A stretch of 64,000 nucleotides of DNA, taken from Rhizophagus irregularis. Lineage: Eukaryota > Glomeromycota > Glomeromycetes > Glomerales > Glomeraceae. The stretch covers positions 4,082,501 to 4,146,500 of the forward strand of contig NC_089444.1 in NCBI RefSeq assembly GCF_026210795.1, given 5' to 3'. The notes below the pieces were generated by a model. It ran no database searches. It was not told the DNA's origin and saw only the letters and a program-made list of their open reading frames with translations. A program made the translations under genes and the position numbers. Shown piece after piece: positions 937 through 45,744 of this stretch. How positions within the stretch are numbered: the stretch's first letter is position 1; each line of letters begins with the position of its first letter.

Positions 937-939
937 TCA
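934..939 (-). promoter_or_regulatory. UGA-CUA leaky stop between gag and protease
   Basis: On the minus strand the gag frame ends TAT-TGA-CTA-CAC and continues without another stop into the protease. UGA followed by CUA is the established readthrough context of several RNA viruses and some cellular genes. The sequence shows the context and the open downstream frame; use as a recoding signal here is inferred. Confidence 0.6.
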
Positions 940-3900
940 ATATCTCAAACCATTTAATAATTTCTTCCTTACTTCTGGTCTTTCATTCATCATTTGTCCC
1001 CAATTAATTGGTACGCTTGAATTTACAAATTGCTCAAATGGATCAAAATCTCCAACATTTGGTATATTTCGATTTAACTTCACTTTCTCGTTTGTACATT
1101 CTCTAGCAAAATGTCCTTGTTGTCCACAATTGTGACACCTATTATTATTCTTTCTAGTTTCATATCCTTTCTGTAATTGTTCTTTTGTAAAACCCCTCTT
1201 ATTATTCCCCTGTGCTTTTTGCTGTTGTCCTTGCCATTGTGCATTTCTTCTTCTATCTCTTTCATCATTCATAACCTTGTCTTTATTTCTTTCACTCTTT
1301 CTAGGTGGTACTGGGAACATATCGTATCTCTCCTCATCTTCATAGTTATTCACTTCGTATCCATCGAATCCATTATTATAGTTATCATCTCCATTACCCT
1401 CATTATATCCATCATATTCATCATTATATTCCATATTATACACATTATATCCTTCACCATAATATTCTTCATCAAGGTAATTAACTTGATTATTTTGGCT
1501 ATATGACCCTTTATTATTTCCTCCATATGATCTTCTTTGACCTTCCCTACAAACTCTAGAAGTATGTCCTTTTCTTCCACATGTATAGCAAGTCATTCTA
1601 TCCCAGTTCATATTATTTCTTTGGACATTATTATTTCCGATCGGTCTCCTATCATTCCTATTCCTTTGCATTACATATGCTTCATTTCTTTGCATTACAT
1701 GTGCTTCCAACCTTTTCATTCCATTAATTAACTCATCCCATTCATCACTTTTAACTTCTTTATTTTGTAATTTTTTCGCAATTGGATTCATTCCTTTATA
1801 TTTATTTGTCTCTTCTTTCAAAATTTCTTCCATGTTTTTCTCTTGTCCTACTCGTTTCATATCTAACCCCGTTGTTTTCATTAACAACTCATCTTTCGCT
1901 TCCTCTTCTCTTTTTGCTTCGTTAACTGCATCATTCAGATTCGTCGGATTACTTCTCCTAACATGATAACCTAGCATGGCATCTAACCCTTGAATAAAAT
2001 AATTCACTTGATATAAATCATCTAACGCATGACCTCTAGTTGCAACTCTTAATATTGACCTAAATCTTCTAGTATATTCTTCAACACTTTCATTTATTCC
2101 CTGTTTAATTCTTGTTAATTCTAACATTTTTCTTCTTTGAACATCATTCCTAGTAAATCTGTCGATTAATCTTCTTTTCAAATTTCTGTCCTCATTATGA
2201 TCACACCAATTCACTAAATTAGCTGCTATCTTTTCTTTTTCTTCATTATACCATTGTAATGCGATTCCTCTCAAACAAGTTATGGCTATATTTGCCTTAT
2301 TCTGTCTACATACACCTCCTCCAACATTTCCTTCTGGTCGTCCGCTTACTGTAAATGCTATCTCAAATTGTCTAATCCAATCATTAATATCTTCATCTTC
2401 TTTTCCACTAAAAGTTGGCATACCTACTATTCCTCCCATTCCTGCGGTCTGAATCCTATCCGCCAAAGTCTGTCCTGCTCCTAACGCATTATCTAATGCA
2501 TTTGGTGCCAATCCCATAGCATTTTCCATTATTCTTCTTATTTGTGCTTCATTTGCCATATTTACTATATTCTCTTGAAATAATTCTTGTAAATTGTAAT
2601 CAGATATTTCACTTTCTGTGTCAGAATTTTTAAAATTTAATGAACTATTCGAATCTGAATTTTGATTCAGACCAAAACCTCCTGTATTTATAACATTTTC
2701 GATTTCATTTTCAGATTCTTCTTCTTCAAAATCTTCATCACTTCCGTCCCATATTTCATATTCTTCTGGACTTAATATTTCTCCAATCTTTTCTGAATCA
2801 TCTGTATTTTCTTCTTCTGATTCTTCATTATCACTCTTTTCACCACTTTCTTCACTATCTATCACTCCTGCTTGTTCTTTCAACAACTTATCTAACTTCT
2901 TCTTTAGTTCTTTTTCTGACTCATTTTTATTTTCTTGAAAGATTTCAATAAATTCTTTATCCAAAATTTCTCCATCTGTATATCCCATACTAGTTAATCT
3001 TAACAATTCCTCTTCAATTATCATTATTCCAATATCCTCAAAAATCTTCTGTAATCTTTTTACCCGATCATCAATTTCATTAATATCTTCTTCTTCACAA
3101 TCTCTGCATACAGTTCCTCCTAATCTAAACATATCATTCATCCATCTTATTTCGCATCTTTCACACCAAGTTGTATTCTCATTTAACCACTTATGAATCT
3201 CTTTTCTTAATTCTTTATCTTCCAAATTTATCATTTCCATATATTCTTCCACAAATTCTTTAGTTATTATTATTCGATTATTTACTCCAAAACTTTTTAT
3301 CCTTTGAATTTCTGATACATCTATTTCGTATCCCAATTTTTCTAAATCATCTTTTAATTCTGCTAACTCATCTTGTTCATCTTTCTGCATTTCTTTAATA
3401 CATTCCTTACATTCATTATCTGTTCTGTCCATTTCGAATCTCCTAATACCACATCTTTTACATATTACTGTTTCTTTTTCTAACCATTCTCTCATCTCCA
3501 ATTCTTTTTCCCTTTCATCCATTTCCTCTACCTCTTGGACTTTATCTATAAATATTTTCGTTACCAATATATCCATTTCTATCATCAACTTTATTCCTAT
3601 CTTCCAAATGTATCTCAATTGATCTTCATCTATAGAACTTGTCCTTCTCTTTAATTCACTAAATTTCCATGATTTGTCTCCTATTATTATCTCTAATTCT
3701 TCCTCAGAACTATTTTCTAATTCGTAACTCGCTGGACTACCTTCACTCTCTGAATCCTCTGGTTCTTTTGTAAAGCCCCTAGTGTCTATAAATATTCTTA
3801 TTATCTTTTGTATCATATTCTTATGATGTTCTTGAACATTATCTATTTCTATATTTTTATATATTATTCCTTGCATTAATTCCTTCACTTTTTCTTCACT

Positions 3901-4494
3901 TTCCGCTATCTTTTCTTCTTCATATAATAATTCTTTGAACTTCTCTATTGCTCCTACTTCTGCTTTTACAGCTCTAATTTCTCCTAATGCGACTCTATAC
4001 CATTGCCAAAATTTCTCAAATCTTCTTTCGACATCCCAACCTTCCAAGATATATTTATGTTCTACTAATTCAGGATTCCCAATTAATCTGTCAAATACTT
4101 CATTCTCTAAATTTCTTTCGATATAATCCCTTACAATTACTAGTATAATTGTCTGTAATCCTTTTTCTTTCATTTTCGGTTGTATCCTATATCTTATTGA
4201 TTCCGTTATTCTATCCATTATGTCTCTACATTTTCCCTTGTGTATTGTATCTTCTCTTTCTGAATTATCCATACTTAATAAATCTATTACTCCCTTGATC
4301 GTTACATTATTATATATTATTATTGTATCTTCGAACTTAAATAATGCATCCCAAAATTTCTTGAATACCATTGGTTCATTTCCTATCGGATGACATAATT
4401 CACAATTTAAACATTCATCTAATTCTCCCGTTCTTAACTCATGTTCTTCTTTATGTGTCCTATATTCACTTTCCCATTGATGGTACCATTCCAT
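937..4494 (-). CDS. Giant Gag protein with duplicated Cys modules and two CCHC knuckles
   Basis: About 1185 residues starting at the ATG at 4494; an in-frame TTG at 4506 is not a plausible eukaryotic start. Residues from about 690 to 860 match the retrotransposon gag core (ALQWYNEE, and the LTRIKQG...VEEYTRRFR segment). Two CCHC knuckles follow: CYTCGRKGHTSRVC near residue 970 and CHNCGQQGHFAREC near residue 1120. The first 690 residues are unlike a standard Gag. They are acidic and contain two copies of a roughly 100-residue module with a tryptophan helix, a CxxC-(15-17)-CxxC pair (about residues 345-365 and 445-468) and an EFxE helix. A third copy lacks the cysteines. An early CxxCxxC lies near residue 35. 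The ORF is uninterrupted, suggesting recent activity. It would form the virus-like particle and bind RNA. Confidence 0.85.
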   Translation of the reverse strand: MEWYHQWESEYRTHKEEHELRTGELDECLNCELCHPIGNEPMVFKKFWDALFKFEDTIIIYNNVTIKGVIDLLSMDNSEREDTIHKGKCRDIMDRITESIRYRIQPKMKEKGLQTIILVIVRDYIERNLENEVFDRLIGNPELVEHKYILEGWDVERRFEKFWQWYRVALGEIRAVKAEVGAIEKFKELLYEEEKIAESEEKVKELMQGIIYKNIEIDNVQEHHKNMIQKIIRIFIDTRGFTKEPEDSESEGSPASYELENSSEEELEIIIGDKSWKFSELKRRTSSIDEDQLRYIWKIGIKLMIEMDILVTKIFIDKVQEVEEMDEREKELEMREWLEKETVICKRCGIRRFEMDRTDNECKECIKEMQKDEQDELAELKDDLEKLGYEIDVSEIQRIKSFGVNNRIIITKEFVEEYMEMINLEDKELRKEIHKWLNENTTWCERCEIRWMNDMFRLGGTVCRDCEEEDINEIDDRVKRLQKIFEDIGIMIIEEELLRLTSMGYTDGEILDKEFIEIFQENKNESEKELKKKLDKLLKEQAGVIDSEESGEKSDNEESEEENTDDSEKIGEILSPEEYEIWDGSDEDFEEEESENEIENVINTGGFGLNQNSDSNSSLNFKNSDTESEISDYNLQELFQENIVNMANEAQIRRIMENAMGLAPNALDNALGAGQTLADRIQTAGMGGIVGMPTFSGKEDEDINDWIRQFEIAFTVSGRPEGNVGGGVCRQNKANIAITCLRGIALQWYNEEKEKIAANLVNWCDHNEDRNLKRRLIDRFTRNDVQRRKMLELTRIKQGINESVEEYTRRFRSILRVATRGHALDDLYQVNYFIQGLDAMLGYHVRRSNPTNLNDAVNEAKREEEAKDELLMKTTGLDMKRVGQEKNMEEILKEETNKYKGMNPIAKKLQNKEVKSDEWDELINGMKRLEAHVMQRNEAYVMQRNRNDRRPIGNNNVQRNNMNWDRMTCYTCGRKGHTSRVCREGQRRSYGGNNKGSYSQNNQVNYLDEEYYGEGYNVYNMEYNDEYDGYNEGNGDDNYNNGFDGYEVNNYEDEERYDMFPVPPRKSERNKDKVMNDERDRRRNAQWQGQQQKAQGNNKRGFTKEQLQKGYETRKNNNRCHNCGQQGHFARECTNEKVKLNRNIPNVGDFDPFEQFVNSSVPINWGQMMNERPEVRKKLLNGLRY

Positions 4495-4803
4495 CGTATA
4501 CTCCAATTAAATTATTATAAATATTCATCCAGAATTCAAATTGAAATTCCACTCTCTTATATATCATTTTTATCGCTTCTATTTTGATCTTCTAACCATC
4601 CTTTACTATATTGTCCTTTCCTATTACCTATATTGAATGTATAATCTTTCTTTCATTATGAATATTCATTTAACAACTTATTTTTTTTTTAAATCTTTTA
4701 CTTATTCATAATATTCTTATATTAATCTTTCAATCTTTAAATCCTCTTTTTTTTGATTTTCACAAGTTTCTTCTGCTATTCTTATCTTTCATAATTTCAT
4801 GTA

Positions 4804-6092
4804 CAGTCACGTCCGAAAGTGACGCCCGATTTAAAATTAATGCCAAAAATGGCAAAACTTTATTGATTTTCATTAAAATTCACATAAAAAATAATTACTA
4901 AAAATGGTTAATAATGTGTTGGCCCTCCCCTTGCTTCTAGTACTGCATTTATTCTTTGTGGCATTGAAGCAACAACCTCTTCAAAAATGGAGCAATCCAA
5001 ATTTTCCCATTCTTCACTTAGTGCAACTTTAAGTTCATCCACAGTTCTTGGAAAGACTTTACAACTCTGGATATTGTCCTTTAACTGCTTCCAGATGTTT
5101 TCTATTGGATTTAGATCGGGAGAATTTGCCGGCCAATCAATAACCACAATTTTATTCTTCTTCAACCAATCCTTGGTTATTTTCGCGGTATGTATGGGTG
5201 CATTATCCTGTTGAAAAATTGCAGCCCTTCCTGTTAACTCATGAACTGTATGCTGAAATGGATACAGATATGAATTTAGGATTCTAATGTAAGTATTTGA
5301 ATTGATTTTTTCATTTCCTTCTTTATTTTCATCACAAAAAATTAATGGCCCTTTTATCCCTCCTGCAAAACATCCCCAAACCATGACTGATTTTCGACCA
5401 CTTTTAAAGATAGGTGTCAAGCATTCAGTGTTAAACCTTTCCCCTGTGTGTCTCCAAACTCTTATTTGTCGTGACTGCTTGCCAATCTCAACACTTGATT
5501 CATCTGAGAAAATAACTTGTGCCCAATCATAAGCTGTTTTTTCTTTATATTTTTCACACCAACTAATACGAGCTAATGCATGCTTTTCTGAGATAAAGGG
5601 TTTTTTTGCAGCAACATGGGAATAAATTCCAACACTATGTAATGCTCTTTTAGCAGTTGTAAGGCTGCAATTTAAATCTAATGTATTAATGACTTCATGT
5701 AAAGGTTCGCGTCGATCTTGTGTAACTTTGTTTATGAGTGCATTTTTCTCATTATTATTGAGAGCAGGTGGACGCCCCGATCTAGGTAAATTTTCAGTTT
5801 TCCCTGTCTTCTTGTATCTGTCAATAATTCTTCTTATTGTGGTGGGGTCACGACCAATTTTTCTTGCTATTTGTGCAGGGTTAAAATTCTCCATATATGC
5901 TAGTATTTTTCCTTTATCTTGAGAAGTTAACTCAGTTCTATGTGACATTATTTTTTTAACTTTGCAACGCGTTTATTAGGTTATGAAATTGTGAGAAAAA
6001 CATTTAAAAATAAAAAAAAGGGGGTATAAATAATGTAAATTTTGTGTATCGTAACACCGTACAAAATCGGGCGTCACTTTCGGACCCGACTG
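4804..6092 (-). mobile_element. Tc1-family transposon with TIRs and TA duplication
   Basis: TA dinucleotides at 4802-4803 and 6093-6094 flank terminal inverted repeats beginning CAGTC..GTCCGAAAGTGA. The two arms (4804-4832 and 6064-6092) differ at two positions near the outer end. The element is 1289 bp, normal for Tc1, and holds one intact transposase ORF. It was inserted into the leader of the Ty3 element. Confidence 0.93.
4908..5948 (-). CDS. Tc1-like DD34E transposase, apparently intact
   Basis: 346 residues from ATG 5948 to the stop at 4908, the usual length for Tc1. The N-terminus holds a paired helix-turn-helix (QDKGKILAYMENFNPAQIAR, then TTIRRIIDRYKKTG) and the GRPP basic linker. The catalytic DDE domain shows the first Asp in VIFSDESSVEIG, the second in FQQDNAPIHTA and the Glu in SPDLNPIENIWKQLK. 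Exactly 34 residues separate the last two, so DD34E. No frameshift or stop is present. It would act in the nucleus, binding the TIRs and moving the element into TA sites by cut and paste. An intact ORF with near-identical TIRs suggests a young, possibly mobile copy. Confidence 0.93.
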   Translation of the reverse strand: MSHRTELTSQDKGKILAYMENFNPAQIARKIGRDPTTIRRIIDRYKKTGKTENLPRSGRPPALNNNEKNALINKVTQDRREPLHEVINTLDLNCSLTTAKRALHSVGIYSHVAAKKPFISEKHALARISWCEKYKEKTAYDWAQVIFSDESSVEIGKQSRQIRVWRHTGERFNTECLTPIFKSGRKSVMVWGCFAGGIKGPLIFCDENKEGNEKINSNTYIRILNSYLYPFQHTVHELTGRAAIFQQDNAPIHTAKITKDWLKKNKIVVIDWPANSPDLNPIENIWKQLKDNIQSCKVFPRTVDELKVALSEEWENLDCSIFEEVVASMPQRINAVLEARGGPTHY

Positions 6093-11177: not shown

Positions 11178-11797
11178 AAATAATTTAATAATATATTATA
11201 ACATTTTAAAAAACATTATATTACTTTATATTCTATTATTTTTTATTCATCTATTCATAAAGAAATTTACTATTTTTCTATTAACTATAATACTTTTTTT
11301 TAATATTTTGTATATCTCTTATTATTGTTTTACGTTCAAATAAATAAAATTTCTATTTTATATAATAATTGTTAAATCATCTATTATTTACTATGTGTAC
11401 GACAATCATTAAATCATTTATTTTTTATGTGTGACAATCATTAAATCATTTATTATGTAACACTGATTAACAATATACATCTGTTACTTTATACAAATTA
11501 TAACACTAACCTATTTTAGTTAATATATTTGATAAACCAAAATTTGAAAAATATTATCACGAGATTATTAAAAAAATGTAGTCATAATAAAAGTGATAAA
11601 TTATAAAACAATCAATTATTATTAAATTGTATAAAGAATTATCAAAAATACGTAGCAGTATGGAAAAAAATTAGTCAAAATAAAGTAAATAAATAAAATG
11701 TTATAAATATTTAAATAAATCACTTTTTCATAAATTTTCTTTTACGAACAATTTATCATTATTTTACAATAAAAAAATAAAAAACCAACTTTTAATT
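11178..11797 (+). other. AT-rich intergenic stretch
   Basis: Nothing beyond A/T-rich sequence and a weak repeat of GACAATCATTAAATCATTTA near 11399-11455. It presumably holds the promoter of the Helitron ORF. Confidence 0.5.
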
Positions 11798-14700
11798 ATG
11801 TCTTATCATATTTTTCAACATTATATTTTTGATATTAATCTATCATCTCAACCACAATTAAATTATCAAGATGATTCTGAGAATATGCTAAGACAATTAC
11901 AAAATCAATTACAAGCTCTTCAAAATGGTAATATATTAAATACTTCATACACTTCAAGATTTTCTACCATTGATAACCAAAGGTACATACCAACCAATCC
12001 TTGGATACCAAGTCAAAAGTTTAATAAACTATTAAATACATTTGAAACAAATATATTAAATCAATTTATTTGTGCTCCTTGTGCATTTTGTGGACGCCTC
12101 ATGTATCCTGAAAAATGTGAATGGCTCCCTTATAATGAAAATTTTCCTTATCCCCTTTTACAAGCATATCCTGAAAAACCATTTGATTCACTATTAACAT
12201 TTCATTCTAGACCTCCAAATCGTATTGCTGTATGTTTATCTTGTAAAAAACCTTCAACTAGATATGCATTTCCTTTCCTTTACCCTGTTCCTAATGAAAT
12301 AAAAGCTGTACCTTTAGGCAGAAGAATGTATTTATCTCCAGTATTTATGCATTGTTCTTTAGGCAGAAATTCTGCAAACAGTGCTATATATTCAGAATAT
12401 AGAACCTTAACTGGTACAATGAATTTTTCAAAAAATACACGTTCTTTAATATTATATTCTGGAATGGTTGGCCCATATCTTGAAGATAACATGGATTTAA
12501 ATTCAAATAATACTTGGTTAGATAACACATTAGTTACAGCAGCAAACTGGTTAAAATTGCATAACCCCTTTTTAAGACCTTATTCACGTCTCTTAGATTT
12601 ACCTGGCACAGATATGGCAAATCCTTTCCCTAGAGCATTTCACATACCAAATGATAATTCAGCTCCACCATTTTTACATAATGATATTATAGTCCCAAAT
12701 ACTAATTTTAATAATGAAGTTCATAATGAGGACTTTCATTATACACATTTAATGGCAGGTTTTGTAAGAACACCTGAAAATACATTACTTCCTCTATCTG
12801 TGAATGATTCAAATTTAGAACCATTGTTATTTCCTGACCTTTTTCCTGATGGCAAAGGACATTATCATGATATTATATCTAATAACAATACAGTACGTGA
12901 AGAAACATATTCTAAGTACATTAAACAAAGAGTACTTAATATTGATTCCCGATTCAGACTTCATCATAAATGGTTAGCTTGGTCATACTTACAACTTGAA
13001 AAGATTCGAAATCACCAAAATAACCAAAGACTATGGAAACAAAAACAAACTGATAGAATACATCGCCCACCAACTGCTGCTGAACTTATTCAAAGATCCT
13101 CCTATACAAATGGACATATCATTAATGAATCTATAACTACAACATTACCTACTTTCATTCGTACTGGTGACACATACTTTCATGAAAAAGAATTACATGT
13201 AAATACAATGATATCAGAATATGGATTACCATCGCTATTTGTTACTCTTACCATGGCAGAAAGCCATTGGACGCACTTACATAAAATCCTAAGAGTAACA
13301 GACAATCATGATACAATTCCAACCAACAGACCATTGCACACTACATTACATTTTATTCATTGTTTACAACAATTAAAAAAACATGTTTGGAAAAGTCCTG
13401 AACATTCAAGATGGGCTGAATTGATTCACTTTTTTGAAAGAATTGAATTCCAAAATCGGGGTGCTGCACATATGCATGGCATATATTGGGTTTCAAAAAC
13501 TATACAACAAATGATTTCTGAAAATCTCATAAGATCTGATTTGCCAGATCCAAATACTGAATTTGATTTATATACAAAAGTAAAAAAACATCAAATCCAT
13601 GTCTGTAGTGCAAAATGTGGAGGTCAAGCTGCGCCTGGACATACTTGTAAAAAGGGATTTCCCCGCCCTTTCTCTTTGACTACATATTATGATGAAAATA
13701 CTCACAGGTATATATATAAATGTATTAAGCCTGAAGATCAATGGGTTGTTCCATATCATCCTGAAACTTTAATGATATGGGATGCCCATATGAACATTCA
13801 GTATGTAAGTTCACGTGGATTAGCTAGATATTTATCAAAATATATATCTAAATCTGAGCCAACTCACGTTTTTAATATAAAAGAAGGTGATAAATTCAGG
13901 GAACATATAATAGCTAGAAGGCTAGGTTCAATGGAATTAATGTTTCTGATATTAGGTGAAGTGATATGTAATTCTTCATGTGCTGTTGAATATCTCACAA
14001 CTGATCCACCTACAAGTAGGCAAAAAGCAATTCGTCCAATTTATTTAATTGATAATAATGATGATCCTTATTGGAAGGATCATATAGAAAAATATTTTAA
14101 TCGACCATTGGGAGATGAATTTAATAATTTAACATATCCAAATTATTTTAAACATTATGAAATAACAAAATCCCGACCAAAGACAACAATACGTCAAATT
14201 CACTCAGATTTATTAAATAATTTTGTTGTTAAAAGAACTACTCCCAGATTAGTTAGATTTCGTTATTTAAAATTACAAGATGGTGAATACTATTTTTATC
14301 AAAAATTATTGCTTGAACTTTCTTGTAGAAGTGAGGAAGAATTACTTAGCACATTTCAAACATATAGAGAACATTGGTTATTTCTCCATCCTGAATTACA
14401 TGAAACAATTCAAGAAATCACACAAGAGTATTTACGAACACAACAATTAAAATTAGATGCTCAATTCAGTCAAACATTAGACACATTATTAAATAATTTA
14501 CAAGATATCATTCCACCTTCAACTTCAGAACTAATTAATATACAACTTACTTCTTTACGAATCAATCCACCAATTCTTCCACAATGCTCTACTCTTAATC
14601 TTCCTAATGATCAACTACATGTACTTTCTACTATTAAAAACATTCTAGGTCCTAAAACACAAAGAAATAAATACCCATACTTTTTTATTACAGGACCTGG

Positions 14701-15911
14701 TGGAACAGGAAAGTCTTTTATTATTAATTTAATTGTTAATGATCTTAAAAATAAAAGATCAAAATACTTATTATTAGCCCCAACTGGTGTGGCGTCACAG
14801 AATATTGGAGGTCAGACAATCCATTCAGCATTGAGAATTCGTGAAATGCAAAATGGATTTCAAACCTTAGCATTTCATGATTATGAATTTTTCAAAAATT
14901 TGCAACAGATTGACACTTTAATCATAGATGAAATTTCAATGGTATCTGCCGCACTTCTTAGTTTTATTTCAGAAATGTTTTCTGTTATACAACAAACAAC
15001 AATTGCATTTGGAGGATTAAATGTAATTATAGTTGGAGATTTGGCACAATTACCTCCAGTAACTGGATTGCCTGTATACAAGTCATCAGAATGGAAATTG
15101 TTCTATCCATTATTCTTGAAAGAGCCACAACGTCAAGGTCAAGATCCACGATATTTCAATGCATTACAAGAGATTAGAATGGACAAAATGACTCTAAACA
15201 CTTGGAATTTCTTATATCAAAAAGCTGCAGAGTTTGACCAGAAATCACTTCACACAACACTTGATATAACAAATATTGTAGGATACAAAGAAACAGCAAA
15301 CCGAATTAATAATATGATTTGCAACATGCTTCCAATTAACCAAAATAAGTTTTTAATTAATTCCGCAGTTGACTTTATTAATGGTGAATCATATAATCCT
15401 GATGAATCAAAAAAATTATTTAAAACAAAACCAATTATCCTAATTATGTACGTTTACAACAAGGAATTCGAGTAATGTACCTCAAAAATGATTTAGCAGA
15501 GCATAAAATTTGTAATGGTACAATAGGTATAATAACTGATGTTGACTTGGAAAATTAGAAGTTAGAGTAGCATTTAGTGTAGTAGGTGGTATTGTGGATA
15601 TAATCATTAAAAGAGATACTGCAACATTTTTTGTTGATGGTAAACCTTCAAGTAGATGCCAATTTCCCCTACAAAATTCATATGCTCTTACCGTTCACAA
15701 AACACAGGGTTTAACCTTATATAAAGTATCCTTATTCTTAGATAATCAAATATTCTCAGCAGGTCAAGCATATGTCGCATTAAGTAGGTGTCCAAACTGG
15801 TCAAATGTTTATATTGCAGCTTTAAATCCTTCTGCATTTATTACAGATCAATCAATGATTGAAGAATATGAGCGACTAGAACAAATAGCATCAACTCCAT
15901 TACCTTTGTAA
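11798..15911 (+). pseudogene. Helitron Rep/PIF1-helicase with two frameshifts
   Basis: The first ORF (11798-15475, 1225 codons) has a CxxCxxC zinc motif near residue 91. The Rep HUH motif FQNRGAAHMHGIYW lies near residues 550-560. A Cys-rich stretch near 600 is followed by the two-tyrosine motif ARYLSKYISK near 676-682. A PIF1 helicase follows: Walker A GPGGTGKS near 966, Walker B IIDEIS near 1045 and GDLAQLPPV. The frame is then lost near 15440. A middle frame (QQGIRVMYLKNDLAEHK) runs to a stop near 15558, and a third frame to 15911 carries helicase motifs V (YALTVHKTQGLTL) and VI (GQAYVALSR). Two indels of net -1 each explain this. The protein would nick and roll the element by rolling-circle replication; this copy should be inactive unless the shifts are assembly errors. 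Confidence 0.9.
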
Positions 15912-19032: not shown

Positions 19033-19911
19033 TCAATCAGCAATAATTGCACAACTTAAACATTCAGAATTATTATTATCATACTTAGGAAGATCTTTTG
19101 TAAAAGGGTTAAGTAATCGAGATGTATAAATAGCTCCTGGATGTTGTTTGTTTTCCTTAAAAGAAGAGAGATGTAATTTTCTGTAAGCTTCTGCTTCTTT
19201 AAATTGCTTTCTAATTTCAGTTGCATTTAAATTGCCTTTTTTATATGAGCTATAAAAATCATAAAATGACTTAATCTCAATATTTAATTCAGTAGCATTT
19301 GGTCTATTATCTGGATTTGAATCCCAACATCTTTTCATTAAGTCAATATAACATTTTGGTACTTCCAGCTCATTTATTTCAGGTCTAATTCCATTGCATA
19401 TCTCTAATGTTAAATGATGGTCATGTGCACAATCGTCAAAAGGTTGCTTTCCAGTTGCTGTAAAATACATAATCATACCAAAGCTATATATATCTGCTGC
19501 TTGACTATAAGGTTTTCTTCTTAATACTTCAGGCGCTATATAAGGGATAACTCCATAAGTTTTTATATCACTTGTGCTATTCACATCTTCACATAATCCC
19601 ATATCTGATATAAATAATGATTTCCTATTAAGATTATTTAAGTTTTTTGTTAAAAACAATATGTTCCCTGTATGAAAATCATGATGAACCTTCTGTTTTT
19701 TATGAATTCCTTTGAGACCTTCAATGATACTAAGTAGTGTTTGTATTTTATTTCTCCAATTAAAATCTTTGTAATTTATGCTTATCCAATTATTATAACT
19801 TCCGCCATCTGCATATTCAACAACTATAATATAATCTTTTGTATTTGGATTCTGAGATATTCCATATACATTAAGAATATCATCTATTTTACTAATTGAA
19901 TATGCTCTAAC
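19033..19911 (-). CDS. Kinase exon 9: C-lobe and tail
   Basis: 292 residues. It starts VRAYSISKIDD (end of helix C), then GISQNP...VVEYADGGSYNNW (beta4, beta5, hinge). The catalytic loop is VHHDFHTGNIL: HRD is HHD, but the catalytic Asp and metal-binding Asn are kept. The DFG position is DMG in FISDMGLCE, and APE is intact in YIAPEVLRR. The subdomain IX motif DIYSFGMIMYF and the RCWDSNPDNRP motif follow, then a tail of about 75 residues. The pattern is TKL-like. The changes in HRD and DFG are conservative enough that activity is possible, but not certain. Confidence 0.88.
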   Translation of the reverse strand, partial: VRAYSISKIDDILNVYGISQNPNTKDYIIVVEYADGGSYNNWISINYKDFNWRNKIQTLLSIIEGLKGIHKKQKVHHDFHTGNILFLTKNLNNLNRKSLFISDMGLCEDVNSTSDIKTYGVIPYIAPEVLRRKPYSQAADIYSFGMIMYFTATGKQPFDDCAHDHHLTLEICNGIRPEINELEVPKCYIDLMKRCWDSNPDNRPNATELNIEIKSFYDFYSSYKKGNLNATEIRKQFKEAEAYRKLHLSSFKENKQHPGAIYTSRLLNPFTKDLPKYDNNNSECLSCAIIAD

Positions 19912-22900
19912 CTATTATAATAAAAATTATTAATTAAAAAAAAGCATTCCGATTAATTAAAATTAACTTATTGAGAAATTTCATACCTCATTGAAAAATT
20001 CATCAATCATATTTTGTGAATTATTTAAACACTTTAAAGCAACTTTTTTATTTGTAATTCTAGTACACATTTCTTTATTAACATCATACTTTAATGGACC
20101 ATCTTTCCATATTGTTGAATAAACTGTAGCAAATCCACCTTTACCTATTTCTTTAATGTAATTAAATTGATTATATGGTATCCATTCAAATATTATATTA
20201 AAATGAGAATTGATCTTTAATCGCATTTCTTCAATTAAATCATCAATTTTTTCATTTCCACTATTAATGGAAGTTGCAGTTACTAGACATTGTTTACACC
20301 ATGTATGATCAATATGACCATATTTTCCACCACAATTTTTGCAATATGTTTTACCATATTCTGTACAATATTCATTTTGAAGAACCAAAATGAAATCCCC
20401 TTTATCCGGGTTTTGAGATATCCCATATATTTCAAAATTATTATCAGATTCTTTGACCTGTAAATTATAGAAATATATCACTAAATTAAAAGAAAATTTA
20501 AATTTAAATTAAAAATATTTCATACCTTATTTAGAAATTTTTGTGAATCATTAAAACATACTAAAGCAATTTCATATTCCCATGTCGCTGAATATACTGT
20601 AACAAAATGGCTCTTGTCTATATTTCTAATTTTACTAAACTGATTGTATGGTATCCATTCAAGTCTTATATCATTTGGTTCATTAATTTTTAATTGAATT
20701 AAACTATCAATTTTATCATTTCCGCTTTTCCAGCCTATAAAATTACACGACTTACACCATTTATACTGGATGTCCATGTATATTTTATCACATAAGCTAC
20801 AATATGTTTCAAAACTTTGACTGCTAAAAATCAAAATATAGTCCTTGGTATCTGGATTTTGAGATATTCCATACAATTGAAAAAAATAGCTATTTATTGA
20901 ATATTTTTTAGCCTAAGACAATAAATTAGAAATTAATATATTAAAAAAAAAAATGTAATAATAAATAAATGCAATGATATAATATGTAGAAATTTATACC
21001 TCATTTATTAGAGAATCAACAGGATTTTGCAAGTTATGCAAACATTTTAAAACAACTTCTTTATTTAAATCTCTTGTATATTTAAGATAATCATAATTAT
21101 AATGTATTGGGCCATTTTTCCATATTGCTGAATATATAGTTATAGCATTTTTGCCTGTTTCTTTAATTTCATTAAACTGATTGTATGGTATCCATTCAAA
21201 TACTACTTCATTATAGGAATAAATATTTAATTGCCTTTCTTGAATGAAATTATCAATTTTTTCATTTCCACTAATCCAATTTACTAAGTTTATAGAATTA
21301 TTTTGAACTAAAATATAATCACTTGTATCTGGATTTTGAGATATTCCAATCAATACAAAAAAGTTGTCATTTTTTGTTGAATATTTTTTAGCCTGAAACC
21401 AACCATCATTAACAGGAAATTAACATCATATTAAAAAATGTAATAAGAAATGTAATAATATTTATAGAAATATATACCTCATTTATTAGAGAATCAACAG
21501 GATTTTGCAAGGTATGAAAAGTATGAAAACATTTTAAAGCAACTACTTTATTTGAATCTCTTGTATAGTAGTTTGAACCCTGCTGAGATTTTTTATATAA
21601 TGGGCCATTTTTCCATATTGCTGAATATACAGTTATTGAACCATTTTTGCTTGTTTCTTCAATTTCATTAAACTGATTGTATGGTATCCATTCAAATACT
21701 ATGTTATTGTAAGAATTAATATTTAATTGCCTTTCTTGAATGAAGTTATCAATTTTTTCATTTCCACTAGTCCAAGTAAGAACTAAAATATAATCACTTG
21801 TATCTGGATTTTGTGATATTCCAAACGATACAAGTAACTTGTCATTTTTTGTTGAATTTTTTTTAGCCTAAAACCAACCATAATTAACAGGAAATTAATA
21901 TCATATAGGGCGTATGCTAGGAAAATTACCAAATAAACAATGAAATTCCATTGTCTAATTGGTCTTAGACACTCATTTTCCTAGAAAACGCCTTATATTA
22001 AAAATGTAATAAGAAATGTAATAATATTTATAGAAATTTATACCTCATTTATTAGAGAATCAACAGGATTTTTCAAGTTATGCAAACATTTTAAAGCAAC
22101 TTCTTTATTTGAATCTCTTGTATAGTAGTATGAACCCTGCTGAGATTTTTTGTATAATGGGCCATTTTTCCATATTGCTGAATATACAGTTATAGAACCA
22201 TTTTTGCTTGTTTCTTCAATTTCATTAAACTGATTGTATGGTATCCATTCAAATACTACATTGTTATAGGAATCAATATTTAATTGCCTATCTTGAATGA
22301 AATTATCAATTTTTTCATTTCCACTAATCCAGGTAAGATATTTTTGAACTAAAATATAATCACTTGTATCTGGATTTTGAGATATTCCAAACAATACAAG
22401 AAACTTGTCATTTTTTGTTGAGTATTTTTTAGCCTAAAACCAACCATTATTAACAGAAAATTAACATCATATTAAAAAATGTAATAAGAAATGTAATAAT
22501 ATTAATAATATTTATAGAAATTTATACCTCGTTTATTAGAGAATCAACAGGATTTTGCAAGTTATGCAAACATTTTAAAGCAACTTCTTTATTTGAATCT
22601 CTTGTATAGTAGTATGGACCGTACTCATACTTTTTGTATAATGGGCCATTTTTCCATATTGCTGAATATACAGTTATAGCATTTTTGCCTGTTTCTTCAA
22701 TTTCATTAAACTGATTGTATGGTATCCATTCAAATACTACATCGTTATAGGAATCAATATTTAATTGCCTTTCTTGAATGAAATTATCAATTTTTTCATT
22801 TCCACTAATCCAGGTAAGATATTTTTGAACTAAAATATAATCACTTGTATCTGGATTTTGAGATATTCCAAACAATACAAGAAACTTGTCATTTTTTGTT

Positions 22901-23817
22901 GAGTATTTTTTAGCCTAAACCAACCATCATTAACAGAAAATTAATATTATATTAAAAGTGTAATAAGAAATGTAATAATATTTATAGAAATTTATACCTC
23001 ATTTATTAGAGAATCAACAGGATTTTTCAAGTTATGTAAACATTTTAAAGCAACTTTTTTATTTGAATCTCTTGTATAGTAGTATGAACCCTGCTGAGAT
23101 TTTTTGTATAATGGGCCATTTTTCCATATTGCTGAATATACAGTTATAGAACCATTTTTGCTTGTTTCTTCAATTTCATTAAACTGATTGTATGGTATCC
23201 ATTCAAATACTATGTCATTATAAGAATTAATATTTAATTGCCTTTCTTGAATGAAGTTATCAATTTTTTCATTTCCACTAGTCCAAGTAAGAACTAAAAT
23301 ATAATCACTTGTATCTGGATTTTGTGATATTCCAAACGATACAAGTAACTTGTCACTTTTTGTTGAATATTTTTTAGCCTAAAACCAACCATCATTAACA
23401 GAAAATTAGCATCATATTAAAAAATGTAATAATAAATGCAATAATATATGTAGAAATTTATACCTCATTTATTAGAGAATCAACAGGATTTTGCAAGGTA
23501 TGAAAACATTTTAAAGCAACTTCTTTATTTGAATATCTTCTATAATATAAACTATGCTGATACTCCTTACGTATTGGGCCATTCCTCCATGTTGCTAAAT
23601 ATACAGTTATAGAACCATTTTTGTATGTTTTTTCAATATGATCAAACTGATTGTATGGTATCCATTCAAATACTACGTCATTATAAGAATTGATATTTAA
23701 TTGCCTTTCTTGAATGAATTTATCAATTTTTTCATTTCCGCTGGTCGAATATATAAAACTACTTTTTAAATATTTTGAAATTTCTGAATGTTCAATAGCT
23801 TTATTTTGGGAAGACAT
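19033..23817 (-). CDS. Protein kinase with eight tandem N-lobe exons and one C-lobe exon
   Basis: Exons in order of reading are E1 23817-23464 (ATG start), E2 23378-22998, E3 22914-22528, E4 22433-22044, E5 21867-21478, E6 21392-21000, E7 20912-20526, E8 20457-19987 and E9 19911-19033 (stop). Introns are 68-94 nt except E4/E5 (176 nt, holds a MITE). Donors read (A/G)AG-GTAT and acceptors end in AG. All exons are multiples of three and all junctions phase 0. Full inclusion would give about 1340 residues with no stop. Each repeated exon encodes beta4-beta5 (GISQNPDTSDYIL), a linker (SGNEKIDNFIQ, EWIPYNQF), then beta1-beta3 with the VALK lysine. E9 supplies the rest of the kinase. E8+E9 is the only pair with a proper glycine loop. 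The family is the expanded kinase group of Glomeromycotina, with a presumed cytoplasmic signalling role. The splice model is read from sequence only. Confidence 0.75.
19987..20457 (-). CDS. Kinase exon 8: zinc-ribbon plus canonical N-lobe
   Basis: 157 residues, the longest of the repeated exons. It holds a CxxC pair set (YCKNCGGKYGHIDHTWCKQC), the SGNEKID signature, EWIPYNQF, the only canonical glycine loop of the array (GKGGFATVYS) and the beta3 lysine in VALKCL. Joined to exon 9 it gives a complete kinase domain, so I regard E8+E9 as the ancestral core and E1-E7 as later copies. Confidence 0.85.
20526..23817 (-). repeat. Tandem array of seven duplicated kinase N-lobe exons (E1-E7)
   Basis: The period is about 475 bp for E2-E6 (560 bp where the intron MITE lies). 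E2 and E5 share a lost KYL segment and the SQQGS linker; E4 also has SQQGS but differs elsewhere, so the copies form a mosaic, which suggests gene conversion or unequal crossing over. The glycine loops are degraded (TGKNAITVY, TSKNGSITVY). E7 has lost the beta3 lysine (ALVCF) but keeps a zinc-ribbon-like CSLC...CKSC. Introns are as similar as exons, so duplication was genomic. Confidence 0.9.
21904..21998 (+). mobile_element. Short MITE in the intron between kinase exons 4 and 5
   Basis: The left arm GGGCGTATGCTAGGAAAAT and the reverse complement of the right arm AGGCGTTTTCTAGGAAAAT form a TIR, flanked by TATA on both sides. It accounts for the extra 90 nt of this intron. None of the other introns has it, so it came after the duplications. 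Confidence 0.75.
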
Positions 23818-35433: not shown

Positions 35434-38347
35434 ATGGAGAGCAGTGGGAATTATTTCAGAAGGATCTTAATAAATACATTTCAAATTCAGAAATTTTAAA
35501 ATTTAATTTTAACAATAAAAATAATATTAATCATATATGGGATAAGATCAAAAAAGGTCTTGTTTAAGCTAGTAAAAATTGTATTCCAATAGAAAAAATC
35601 AAATTAACTAAAAGTCGAGTCAACCCAATGAAAATATCTAATGCATATAAAGTAATGAAATTTTTAATAAATTTCAGACGTTCAATTAAAGATTCAAGAA
35701 AAAGAAATCATGTGATCAGAAATTGGATTACATATAGAAAAAAATTATTGGAAATTGGAAGAGAAAAAAGTGATTATTGTTGGAATAAAATTCCTAAGGA
35801 TGATAAAAGTGTCAAGGAAATTTTTGAAGAAATAAAAAATTATATCAAATTTATTTAATCCTATATAATCATAATCTTTTACAATTCAAAGAAGAAAAAA
35901 TCAAACTAGCAATTGACTAACGCTGTGAAGATTTATTAGAAAATCAAAAACGTATGATTAATAGTATAATGGAACGTGAAATTAAATCTATTGTATTAGA
36001 CAAAGTTCTAATTAAAGAAAATAATGAAGATAAATTAATCACTGATGAAGAAAAAATAAAAGATATTGTAAATGATCATTTTCAAAATATTGCAGGATCA
36101 ACAAACCAACGTAAGATTTTATCAGAATATTGGGCAAAATTTTATTTTCTGCAAGATGAAATTAATGATATAATTTATAAAGATTTGATGGTAGAGCCTA
36201 CAAATAATGAATTGAATGAAGCTTTAAATAAATTATCAAATAATAAAGCTTCTGGACCTACAGGTATTAGTAATGAAATGTTGAAACACGCATCTTCAGA
36301 ATTTAAAGAAATTATTAGAAAATTAATTATTTTAATTTTTAATAATCAAGAGATACCATTAGAATGGAAATATGCTAATGTTTATCCTATACCGAAACCA
36401 AAGTCATGGGTTGTCAATTAGTTAATACACGCCCAATAACTTTGTTGGAAACGGCTAGAAAATTAATGGTATCAATAATGAATGCAAGATTATCAACAAT
36501 TCTTCAGAAAAACAAAATTCTTAAAGGTTTACAATTTGCTGGATTGCCTTTCAGTTCAACTTTTGAACCATTAAGGATTATTAATGAAATAATTCAAGAT
36601 GCTAATGAGAATGATAAGGAACTGTGGATTTTATCATTAGACATGTCAAAAGCATATGATCGGGTTAATATTTTTATGTTAGAAAAAGCTATGCAATGTC
36701 TTAAAATACCAAGTTCTTTTATTAATTTAACAAAAGAGTTATTTTAGGACGGAAAAATAGTGTATTTACAGCAGGAGGATTAAGTAATCCATATGATGTA
36801 ATGGGAATCGATCAAGGGGAAATAATCTCACCACTTTTGTGGTGTATATATTATGATCCACTACTTACTGCCATATAGCAAGAACACTTTGGATATCGTG
36901 TAAAGGCAAAAAAGAAAATCAATTTATATGAAAATATAGAGGTAGAAGTAAACCAAAACATTACCAGCATGACATATATGGATGATACTAATATGTTAGC
37001 TGGCAATAAAGAAGAATTAGAAAAAATATTAAAAACAGCTGATGACTTCTATACTCTTAACGATATTCAAATAAATAAAGAAAAATCTGAATTGTTACTT
37101 AAGAAAAAGAATTTTAATTTTAATGAAAAAATAGAGTTAGAATTTGGCAATCAGAAAATCAAAATCAAACCTAAAGGAAAAACAGAAAGTCTTAGAATCT
37201 TGGGTGTTTGGTTCAATATATATAATGATAACAATTTTATCAAACAACAAGCCTTTGATGAAGTCAAAAATTTAAGTAATAACCTGCTGAAGAACAAATG
37301 CATAACAGACAAAATTAGTTCCTATATTTTTAATGCTGTAATATTACCACGTATTGAATATAGGACACAAACGATAATACTATCAGAAAAAGATTGTGAA
37401 AAAATCATGGTTCTTTATAGAAAAAATTTTAAAAATAAATTAAAGTTAGCTTCAACTGCACCAAATATAATTATGGAATTGAATTTATTATATAATATTT
37501 GTTCAATTTTTGATAATCAATTGCAAGCTAAGGTTAATAATTTTATAATTCAAATTAATGATCAAGGAATTCTAGGAAAAATAATGGAGATTCGTTTAGT
37601 AGATATTCAAAATAAACTACTTTTACCTCTCAATCCTTTAATTAATTTTCCTTTTTCTAATAAAGATTTAATCTTTATGGGTCAACATTTGCAAAATAAT
37701 TTTATTATTAATAATTTATTATTAATGAAAAGTTATAATTTTAGTATAGAATTTAATAAACACAATATTGGAAAAAATAGTACTGTATTAGGAAGGGGTC
37801 GTCATATTATGGAAATTGTTGGAACTGAAAGTTTTTTGAAAAATATAAAAATTTTACATATGAATAATTTATACTTTTTGGACCAATTTTTATCTCCTGA
37901 TAACAAAACTCTTCTGACATGGTGGAATATAAAAAATAAGATATTTGCTCTTAGTAATAATAGAAATAGTAATGTAGTTAATACGCCAAATATATATAAA
38001 AAAATTCAGTCTTTAGTTACAACTAATGGAAAAATTATAATGTTAAAGAGGAATATATAGATAATAATGTAGTCACAAATTTGGGTGGTTATGAATTTTT
38101 ACCAATTAATATTCATATTAATAATATTATAACATCTTTTAATATGTTTCATTTTGAAAATATTTATGGAAAAATAATTGAAGAAAAGCCCTTTACATAT
38201 ATTTTTGAACATTTTAAAAGAATATCGAACACAAGTGAAATTAATTTGTTTATTAAAGTATGTAATGGTTGTGAATATAATATTGGTCAAATAGAGGGTA
38301 AATGTATAATAGAATCAATGAAAACTGAAATATATGAAGTGAGATAT
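35434..38347 (+). pseudogene. LINE reverse transcriptase, disrupted
   Basis: In order: an Arg/Lys-rich segment (IKDSRKRNHVIRNWITYRKK); RT fingers (NNKASGPTGISNEMLKHA, WKYANVYPIPKPKSW); after a frameshift near 36415 RPITLLETARKL and catalytic motif A LSLDMSKAYDRVN; after a stop at 36747 motif B GIDQGEIISPLLW; and motif C MTYMDDTNMLAG with the YMDD Asp pair (about 36972). A thumb/connection region with DNQLQAKVNNFIIQIND runs to 38060 and, after a further stop, to the insertion point at 38347. At least three frame breaks make it inactive. It is homologous to the minus-strand copy at the right edge (TDFCIQLNDNGLLGKITEIR). Confidence 0.9.
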
Positions 38348-44177: not shown

Positions 44178-45744
44178 ATATAAAAGACTTATTAAATGGA
44201 AGGGATATAAGGCATATCTTCTAAAGGAAGCACAACATAATTATATGGAAAATATTATAAGATATGATTAATTTTTTAAACGAAACCCTTTATATTACTC
44301 TTCATATGATAATTATCAATTACGTTTTGATGAAAATAGTTTAGATATTATTGAAAAATATATAGATTTATCATTAGATAAACAGAAATTATTTGATTCA
44401 AGAAAAATTTTATATGATTCAAATGTTAAAGATTTTGTTTACTATACAGATGGTTCAATTAAAGATATTACCAAAGAATATGTATCAGCTACTTTTGGAA
44501 CAACTTTTTATAATTTGTCCTTGCAAAAAATTTTGGAATTAATATCATCTTATAATAATTGGATTTCATCAACACGTGCAGAAATTTTTGCTTTATTAAT
44601 TACTTTGCTAATAGCACCTTCTAATAGTAATTTAACAGTTTATACAGATAGTGCTAGTGTTATTAGTAATTTTGAAAAATTTAAATTTTATAATTTTACT
44701 TTAGTTACTAGACAAATTTTTAAAATTAGTAATAACAACATTCTTTGGAAAATAATTATGGATATTATTAAAGAAAATAATTTATCTGTTAATATATTTA
44801 AAGTTAATGCTCATACAGATGATTCTTTAAATAATTATGTTGACAATATTGTTTTTTTGGCACATAATGATCAAAATTTAGGAATTAATTTAAATTATAA
44901 TAATTTTTATGATCTTCCTTGGATTCCCAAATGGAATGGCATATTTATAGAAAAATCTTTAAGAAAGTTAATTACATTAACAACCAATATGAAAAATTTG
45001 GAAAGGTTTTTAAATTTAAATAGAAATGATAAGTATAGAAAATGTGAAATAGATTGGTCAATTTTTTTTAATAATTTTTTGGGAGAAAAACAAAAATTAT
45101 ACACTGATTTCAAAGAATCAAAAATTAGAAGACGCAAAATTCAGTTGATGATTGAAGAACTTCCTTGCATTGAACAAATTAAAAGAACTTTATTTTCATT
45201 ATATAAAGAAAGGTTTTGTCCTATGTGTGAAGAGGATGAAGAAGATTTCAATCATATCTGATTTTGTGAAGAAAGACGAGAGGATATGGATGATTTAATT
45301 TCAGGAGTACAAAATTGGCTTCTTTTAGAAATTAATAAAATTTTAGATCCTATTAATCATATTACTCTTGAACATATTAAAAATCTCAATGATATTTGGA
45401 AACTTGAAGTATCAGAGGATCACATAACTTTCATAGATTTAATTAAAGGTTTCTTTCCTTGTTCGTTAATTAATTTTTTTAAACAATTATTATCTACAAA
45501 ATCAAAAGTTGAAATTTTGTCATATAATTTTAGGAATAAAATTTTGGATAAATCTATGATTTTTTGGAAAGTGAGGTGTAATAAACTTAATGAAATTGAT
45601 AAAGGTTTGGGAATTGATAAAAATGTTAAAAAACAACATTTTGGTAAAGAGCAGTTTATTGACAAAACGCGTAAATCAAAAAATACGAAATACTTTAATC
45701 TACAAAGTCTTCAAAGTCATATTTATTTTGGGGTAATACAATAG
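44178..45744 (+). pseudogene. LINE RNase H domain and C-terminal tail
   Basis: Continues the LINE ORF after the insertion (KRLIKWKGYKAYLLKEAQHN), with a stop near 44270 and then a long open stretch. The RNase H catalytic residues are in place: Asp in FVYYTDGSI, Glu in STRAEIFALL, Asp in VYTDSASV and the last Asp in NAHTDDSLNNYVDN. A CPMC...FNHI zinc-knuckle-like motif follows, typical of LINE C-termini, with a stop at 45259 where a Trp would fit. The tail runs to 45744. Similarity to the minus-strand copy at 59349-60656 is clear. Confidence 0.88.

What the first reader, a model, noticed from the sequence alone, without database searches (positions are those of the whole stretch)
19033..23817. 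Kinase gene with eight phase-0 N-lobe exons feeding one C-lobe
The tandem exons each encode beta4-beta5 plus a new beta1-beta3, all junctions are phase 0 and none has a stop. This permits either a concatemer of partial N-lobes of about 1340 residues, or exon choice where one of eight N-lobes is joined to the single C-lobe. Only E8 has a proper glycine loop. Mutually exclusive or cassette exons on this scale would be a new way for a fungus to diversify a kinase.
Basis: partly seen in the sequence, partly recalled or inferred. Interest (0 to 1): 0.88.

Follow-up and report, generated by a model that had tools for sequence, protein, structure and literature searches.

The report
Kinase half-domain repeated as exon array
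In a root-symbiotic fungus, one half of a protein kinase has been copied many times as a string of exons in front of a single complete kinase, most likely making one long chain of inactive half-kinases attached to one working enzyme rather than a choice of alternative exons.

Summary
On the minus strand, nine phase-0 exons (19033-23817) encode 1343 residues: eight N-lobe units and one C-lobe.

It is one of many. The window plus 17 fetched arrays carry 3-35 called unit exons each, and chains occur in annotated R. clarus, R. diaphanus and Glomus cerebriforme proteins. The order is fixed: start exon, units without a full glycine loop, one Gly-loop unit, one C-lobe. Of 100 listed proteins with at least 3 units, a C-lobe motif and a strict-pattern loop, 99 have the loop only in the last unit. 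Eleven OCT59 models skip 0 of 84 units and use 61 of 66 neighbour junctions exactly.

This favours a concatemer over exon choice, which is also awkward because each N-lobe is split at the alphaC Glu and E1 begins the gene. No RNA reads were available; the window gene itself has only a partial, odd annotated model (P0149); the function of the chain is inferred.

The parts
23464..23817 (-). E1: start exon (MSSQN...), linker helix, N-lobe beta1-beta3 up to alphaC Glu; no Gly-loop
   Evidence: MSSQN/MFSQN/MFPQN-type N-termini recur in many first exons of other arrays
22998..23378 (-). E2: beta4-beta5 of unit 1 + linker + beta1-beta3/alphaC of unit 2, no Gly-loop
22528..22914 (-). E3: same unit type, no Gly-loop
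22044..22433 (-). E4: same unit type, no Gly-loop
21478..21867 (-). E5: same unit type, no Gly-loop
21000..21392 (-). E6: same unit type, no Gly-loop
20526..20912 (-). E7: unit with Cys-rich (CxxC-like) linker; loop degenerate (DKSHF), VAIK Lys lost (ALVC)
   Evidence: translation; 84 residues identical to annotated P0149
19987..20457 (-). E8: last unit, Cys-rich linker, Gly-loop GKGGF, VALK Lys, alphaC Glu
19033..19911 (-). E9: beta4-beta5, hinge, complete C-lobe (HHDFH, DMG, APE), stop at 19033-19035
   Evidence: the same segment in the close relative P0044 is covered by Pfam PF07714 and PF00069
21903..21998 (.). Palindromic, MITE-like insert inside the E4-E5 intron; one other copy found in the genome (99%, C11:3658561-3658656)

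Best explanation
This is one fixed-order gene that encodes a long chain. Eight kinase N-lobe units (beta1-beta3, alphaC, then beta4-beta5) follow one another, and only the last is joined to a C-lobe. All exons are spliced in order (inferred from annotated models of sister genes and from sequence; no reads seen here). Units 1-7 should not be enzymes: they have no C-lobe of their own and no proper glycine loop. Unit 8 plus E9 forms one complete kinase domain whose key residues are kept. The exon-intron unit, cut at the same phase-0 point at the alphaC Glu, can be gained or lost in frame by unequal crossing-over or gene conversion, so unit number drifts between genes (3-35 called unit exons per array) and possibly between strains (not tested). 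Most likely function (inferred): the loop-less N-lobes act as a multivalent binding or regulatory arm that docks on or modulates the terminal kinase or partner kinases.
Against: No RNA read was examined. The window gene has no concatemer model among the 120 proteins listed by each of three searches; the only identical product is P0149 (386 aa, E7-E9, with three extra in-frame gaps that remove the loop, Lys and HxD). For 7 of the 18 arrays no OCT59 model was listed, and short models were less likely to be listed, so the 11 are not a random sample. Within the window, E6 against E2, E4 and E5 has dN above dS, so constraint at this locus alone is weak. Most OCT59 models examined add gaps inside units or C-lobes. 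Gene models are predictions even when RNA-guided. 41 of 141 qualifying proteins show no loop at all by the strict pattern, and one (P0120) has a second loop in unit 3.
Confidence: 0.77

Rival explanations
1. Exon choice: splicing joins one (or a few) of the eight N-lobe exons to the single C-lobe, giving a family of kinases from one gene.
For: All exons are symmetric phase 0-0, so any combination is in frame.
Against: Only E8 has loop, Lys and Glu together. The loop is confined to the last unit in 99 of 100 proteins. Units are split at the alphaC Glu, so E1's N-lobe is always present if transcription starts at E1. 0 of 84 units are skipped in 11 models. No exact complement of 9 nt or more to words shared by at least 5 introns occurs in the gene. 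Introns of 68-176 nt leave no obvious steric block (inference).
Confidence: 0.08
2. Only the 3' end is a functional gene: a transcript starting in E7 or E8 makes an ordinary single kinase (about 370-450 aa) and E1-E6 are silent or decaying copies.
For: Annotated P0149 starts in E7. P0123 starts at a Met in the E8-type exon and is 372 aa; its C-lobe lies at the sister locus C16:4491487-4492362 at 99%. E6 comparisons show dN above dS.
Against: Frame and splice sites are kept across all units here and in most units of 18 arrays. MSSQN-type first exons recur. Sister genes are modelled with their units.
Confidence: 0.13
3. The concatemer is made but the extra N-lobes are a neutral by-product of runaway unequal crossing-over, tolerated rather than used (compatible with the concatemer, rival to its function).
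For: Copy number is very variable (3-35 called unit exons). Some exons are identical within or between arrays. Constraint is only moderate (pN/pS about 0.58 against 0.8 neutral).
Against: Lys kept in 150 of 160 and alphaC Glu in 139 of 160 loop-less units, with a shared non-canonical loop (Asn at the second Gly position in 133 of 160), although shared ancestry explains part of this. The architecture recurs in entries of four species.
Confidence: 0.35

Closest known systems
Expanded protein-kinase repertoire (PF07714-type, tyrosine-kinase-like) of Rhizophagus irregularis (passages read: PMC10234402, PMC6123716, PMC8647823, PMC4219462)
   Same: Same genome and the same Pfam family for the terminal kinase (PF07714 in the relative P0044). 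2,533 kinase genes are reported (passage).
   Different: The passages read speak of gene copies and of tandem arrays of duplicate genes, not of arrays of N-lobe exons inside one gene.
Mutually exclusive tandem exons (abstract read: PMC9013439; listing only: PMC6071210)
   Same: Tandemly duplicated, in-frame exons of one gene.
   Different: The units are not interchangeable (one carries the loop), they are split across the fold, they are used together in the annotated models examined, and no enforcing signal was found.
Tandem kinase / pseudokinase-kinase proteins (wheat tandem kinases, listing only; JAK JH2-JH1, recalled)
   Same: Non-catalytic kinase-like units fused in cis to one kinase domain.
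   Different: There each unit is a whole two-lobed domain (recalled); here the extra units are N-lobes only, up to dozens of them, with one C-lobe.
Repeat proteins grown by exon duplication (titin or nebulin type, recalled)
   Same: Phase-compatible repeat exons whose copy number can change by unequal recombination.
   Different: The repeat here is half of an enzyme domain, and each repeat is split between two exons.

Membership tests
Protein kinase, PF07714-like (terminal unit E8-E9) | Glycine loop, VAIK Lys, alphaC Glu | tested here: met
   E8 has GKGGFATVY, VALK and FFNE.
Protein kinase, PF07714-like (terminal unit E8-E9) | HRD Asp, DFG Asp, APE | tested here: met
   E9 has HHDFH, SDMG and APE; the two Asp and the Glu are kept, but Arg is His and Phe is Met.
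Protein kinase, PF07714-like (terminal unit E8-E9) | Curated Pfam score and fold | tested here: met
Protein kinase (units E1-E7) | Two-lobed domain with catalytic loop | tested here: not met
   No C-lobe motif between units; one C-lobe exon at the 3' end. Relatives of these units fold as N-lobe only.
Mutually exclusive exon cluster | Alternative exons are interchangeable functional versions | tested here: not met
   Full loop plus Lys only in E8; strict loop in 0 of 157 non-last called exons of 18 arrays.
Mutually exclusive exon cluster | Signals that forbid joint inclusion (frame, steric, RNA docking) | tested here: inconclusive
   Joint inclusion keeps frame; introns 68-176 nt; no shared docking complement of at least 9 nt (exact matches only).
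Mutually exclusive exon cluster | One and only one exon in each mRNA | not testable with these tools
   No RNA reads available.
Tandem kinase protein | Two or more whole kinase domains in one chain | tested here: not met
   The window gene has one C-lobe exon. Of the 120 proteins listed, 65 have one HxD-type motif and 55 none by the pattern used; none has two.
Repeat protein grown by exon duplication | Similar phase-compatible exon-intron units in tandem, variable number | tested here: met

The most novel reading that the evidence does not exclude
A kinase N-lobe has been turned into a true protein repeat domain: recombining exon units build chains of up to dozens of loop-less N-lobes in front of one live kinase. 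The chain works as a length-tunable allosteric or docking arm that diversifies symbiotic signalling in AM fungi by copy number rather than by alternative splicing.
Probability: 0.35. Interest if true: 0.82.

Novelty: new variant of a known kind. Interest (0 to 1): 0.62.

Why it matters
Kinase N-lobes are not known to me as a stand-alone tandem repeat. If these chains are translated, part of the puzzling kinase expansion of AM fungi is not more kinases but longer kinases with dead half-domains. Gene counts, pseudokinase counts and strain comparisons for these fungi would need rechecking, and the split at a phase-0 intron gives a simple way to add or remove units without breaking the frame. It is directly testable with Nanopore cDNA already produced for isolate DAOM197198 (PRJNA885267 by the text of PMC10234402, passages read).

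Tried and rejected
Exon choice was tested against unit anatomy, loop position, annotated junctions and docking complements and is disfavoured. A pseudogene array was tested by stops, frameshifts and pN/pS; it is rejected for the family, but the signal is weak for this gene alone. Two figures of mine are not used as independent evidence: exon length divisible by 3 in my array calls is forced by the caller, and the stop count of 5 in 175 called exons understates damage because the caller starts from open frames. One array, at C16:2.54 Mb, has a unit broken into two open pieces (L027 5680 and 5821). The best-scoring 150 units are also a favourable sample. I first took P0044 (862 aa, unnamed R. 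irregularis) as another strain's version of the window gene with fewer units; it matches the paralogue at C16:4.49 Mb slightly better (91.4% against 88.7% over the 3' part), so no strain copy-number claim is made. 'Ordinary' kinases in the tree (9 rows) include truncated models of array genes, two of them identical to last units, so the tree shows grouping, not origin. The tree used 104 units, with 70 of 145 internal units sampled, 68 columns, and two rows out of place (FIRST_L017, INT_3_8). Of 175 called exons, 169 entered the residue counts; those with stops or under 105 aa were dropped. The strict loop pattern leaves out E7-type units: 6 of 160 keep both loop Gly (GKGHF or GKGNF), none of them with the Lys in the called exon. 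Pfam hits to BCS1_N, YnaM, gp45 and the like in the repeats are probably chance matches amplified by repetition and were ignored. Foldseek ranked JAK structures first for the repeat model, but with rmsd 18.6 and 20.8, so only the VIA-align N-lobe match is used. Nine paper searches listed no paper that I recognised as describing N-lobe exon arrays. Kwon et al. 2019 on pseudokinases is not held and is known to me only from a reference list and recall.
Full report
WHERE IT IS. The window is G000:C16:4082501-4146500, and G000 has 146,748,485 bases in 32 contigs. Contigs C16 (4,919,323 bases) and C11 (5,223,174) have the same lengths as contigs behind OCT59 proteins of Rhizophagus irregularis; C24 (3,617,500) is about 1.4 kb shorter than the contig listed for OCT59_015874 (3,618,924). 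Many exons of fetched arrays are 100% identical to OCT59 proteins. PMC10234402 describes a DAOM197198 assembly of 146,773,001 bp in 32 scaffolds (passages). I take G000 to be that assembly; that the OCT59 tags belong to it is recalled, since the tag is not in the text.

WHAT THE SEQUENCE SHOWS. On the minus strand lie nine exons: E1 23817-23464, E2 23378-22998, E3 22914-22528, E4 22433-22044, E5 21867-21478, E6 21392-21000, E7 20912-20526, E8 20457-19987, E9 19911-19033. All have lengths divisible by three, all introns are GT..AG (68-176 nt), each intron holds in-frame stops, and the joined frame is 1343 aa. E1 starts with MSSQN and ends at the alphaC Glu (..LINE). E2-E8 each start with a beta4-beta5 segment (such as ..FGISQNPDTSDYILV..) and end at the position of the next alphaC Glu (Lys in E7). 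E9 holds beta4-beta5 and the whole C-lobe. Only E8 has GKGGF plus VALK plus Glu. E7 has a degenerate loop and has lost the Lys.

IT IS A GENOME-WIDE FORM. One internal unit as query gave 150 scored matches (cap reached, 4531 candidates) in 36 clusters, 27 with two or more units, on ten contigs. A degenerate motif of the linker has 577 hits against 1 for its reversed control (not all of these need lie in arrays). I fetched 20 regions and analysed 18 arrays: 17 of them there, plus the window. They show first exons without the loop, a run of units without the strict loop, and, in 15 of 18, a loop-bearing unit followed by an open C-lobe exon of at least 284 aa in the fetched stretch. The exceptions are C16:3.51 Mb (stop in the loop exon, C-lobe reduced), C9 (no loop exon or C-lobe found) and C11 (loop exon present, C-lobe not in the stretch). 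The longest, on C20, has 35 called unit exons. With the strict pattern G.G[GAS]F no called exon other than the last carried a loop (0 of 157). E7-type units are the near-exceptions: 6 of 160 non-loop units keep both loop glycines (GKGHF or GKGNF), all of this type, and none shows the Lys in the called exon.

RESIDUES. In 160 units without the strict loop the second loop glycine is Asn in 133 and Gly in 7, the VALK Lys is kept in 150 and the alphaC Glu in 139. In the 9 loop units of that alignment both glycines, the Lys and the Glu are kept in all 9. Across the 322 proteins listed by three searches (120 listed per search of 431, 1767 and 592 hits), 141 have at least three N units and a C-lobe motif; 99 of these have the loop only in the last unit, 1 elsewhere as well (P0120, Glomus cerebriforme), and 41 show no loop by the strict pattern. 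Chains occur in R. irregularis, R. clarus, R. diaphanus and G. cerebriforme entries.

CONSTRAINT. 148 of the 150 scored units have no stop. Four frameshift splits were seen among 253 profile hits, whereas introns, about five times shorter, differ between neighbours by a non-multiple of three in 77 of 123 pairs. Both unit samples favour intact copies. Pooled pN/pS is 0.576 within arrays (998 pairs), 0.616 between arrays (11,691 pairs) and 0.52 for loop exons (35 pairs). A neutral simulation at 75% AT gives 0.80-0.84 (one parameter set). Within the window, E6 compared with E2, E4 and E5 has dN above dS, so the window gene alone is not a strong case for purifying selection.

CONCATEMER OR CHOICE. 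Eleven of the 18 arrays have an OCT59 model among the listed proteins. Mapped back to DNA, these models run through the units in order: of 84 units within their span, 68 are used over 90%, 16 in part (19-74%) and 0 are skipped (under 10%), and 61 of 66 neighbouring junctions are used exactly. The annotation described in PMC10234402 combined Illumina evidence with full-length Nanopore cDNA, but which junctions had reads is not known to me, and short models were less likely to reach the listed 120. Skipping from E1 can never give 'one N-lobe plus C-lobe' except E1-E9, because each internal exon ends one N-lobe and begins another; E1 has no loop. Words of 9 nt or more shared by at least five introns have no exact complement in the gene, so a docking scheme of the competing-structure kind is not apparent.

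EVOLUTION. In a tree of 104 unit sequences the 9 loop units group with 9 single-unit kinases (18 rows, 98/86) and separately from all but two of the 86 sampled first and internal units (branch 99/82; the two are long rows). Identical or over 97% identical exons occur within arrays and between arrays at C16:3.36 and 3.57 Mb, 4.36 and 4.56 Mb, and 2.95 and 2.92 Mb. This points to unequal exchange, gene conversion or recent duplication in units (inference).

THE WINDOW GENE'S OWN ANNOTATION. The only listed protein identical to the window is P0149 (386 aa, DAOM 181602). It starts inside E7, uses E7|E8 and E8|E9 as called here, and has three extra in-frame gaps (252, 114, 75 nt) with GT..AG ends that would remove the loop, the Lys and the HxD segment. 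Gaps inside units or C-lobes appear in most of the OCT59 models examined. I could not tell predictor habit from real splicing.

CONCLUSION. The best-supported reading is a fixed-order concatemer: N-lobe repeats without a working loop in front of one kinase. That all units are translated together, and what the chain does, are inferences. Exon choice is disfavoured by position-specific loss of the loop, by the split units and by annotated models, but only long-read RNA would settle it.

Noticed in passing
window 21903-21998: Palindromic MITE-like insert in the E4-E5 intron, with one other 99% copy found at C11:3658561-3658656; it lengthens the intron to 176 nt without touching the exons.
   Followed up: partly
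window 937-4506, 4908-5972, 11693-15475, 36879-38060, 44272-45261, 59724-60653, 61555-63093: The neighbourhood is rich in mobile elements: gag/zinc-knuckle ORF, DDE_3/Tc3-type transposase, Helitron/PIF1 ORF, reverse transcriptase and RNase H fragments, and a DDE_1/Tc5-type transposase.
   Followed up: no
C-lobe exons of other arrays, e.g. L024 6723-7119, L009 5535-5889, and window gene model P0149: OCT59 and DAOM181602 gene models often contain in-frame gaps inside the uninterrupted C-lobe frame that remove catalytic segments; some have GT..AG ends, others do not by a simple check that misses split codons. Predictor artefact, RT artefact or real in-frame introns.
   Followed up: partly
internal units, e.g. 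L014 4747-4870, L018 5370-5493, L011 3617-3740: A recurrent gap of about 123 nt in OCT59 models shortens single units; in P0028 it fuses ..NPDT to IFEW.., removing the beta5 end and linker helix.
   Followed up: partly
G000:C20:1705930-1721998: An array with 35 called unit exons; neighbouring units alternate between two length classes (378 and 396 nt) over part of it, suggesting a higher-order two-unit repeat. No annotated model of it was among the listed proteins at 97% or more.
   Followed up: no
E7-type exons (window 20526-20912; also C16 arrays at 3.36, 3.57, 4.49, 4.69, 2.95, 2.92 and 4.64 Mb, and C20): A penultimate unit of a distinct class with a Cys-rich linker: loop glycines often kept (GKGHF/GKGNF) but Lys lost (e.g. 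VALV in P0028 and P0005), the reverse of the other internal units.
   Followed up: partly
G000:C3:5530097-5533670 (L007, L008): Another array type with longer units (158-195 aa open frames), not analysed further.
   Followed up: no
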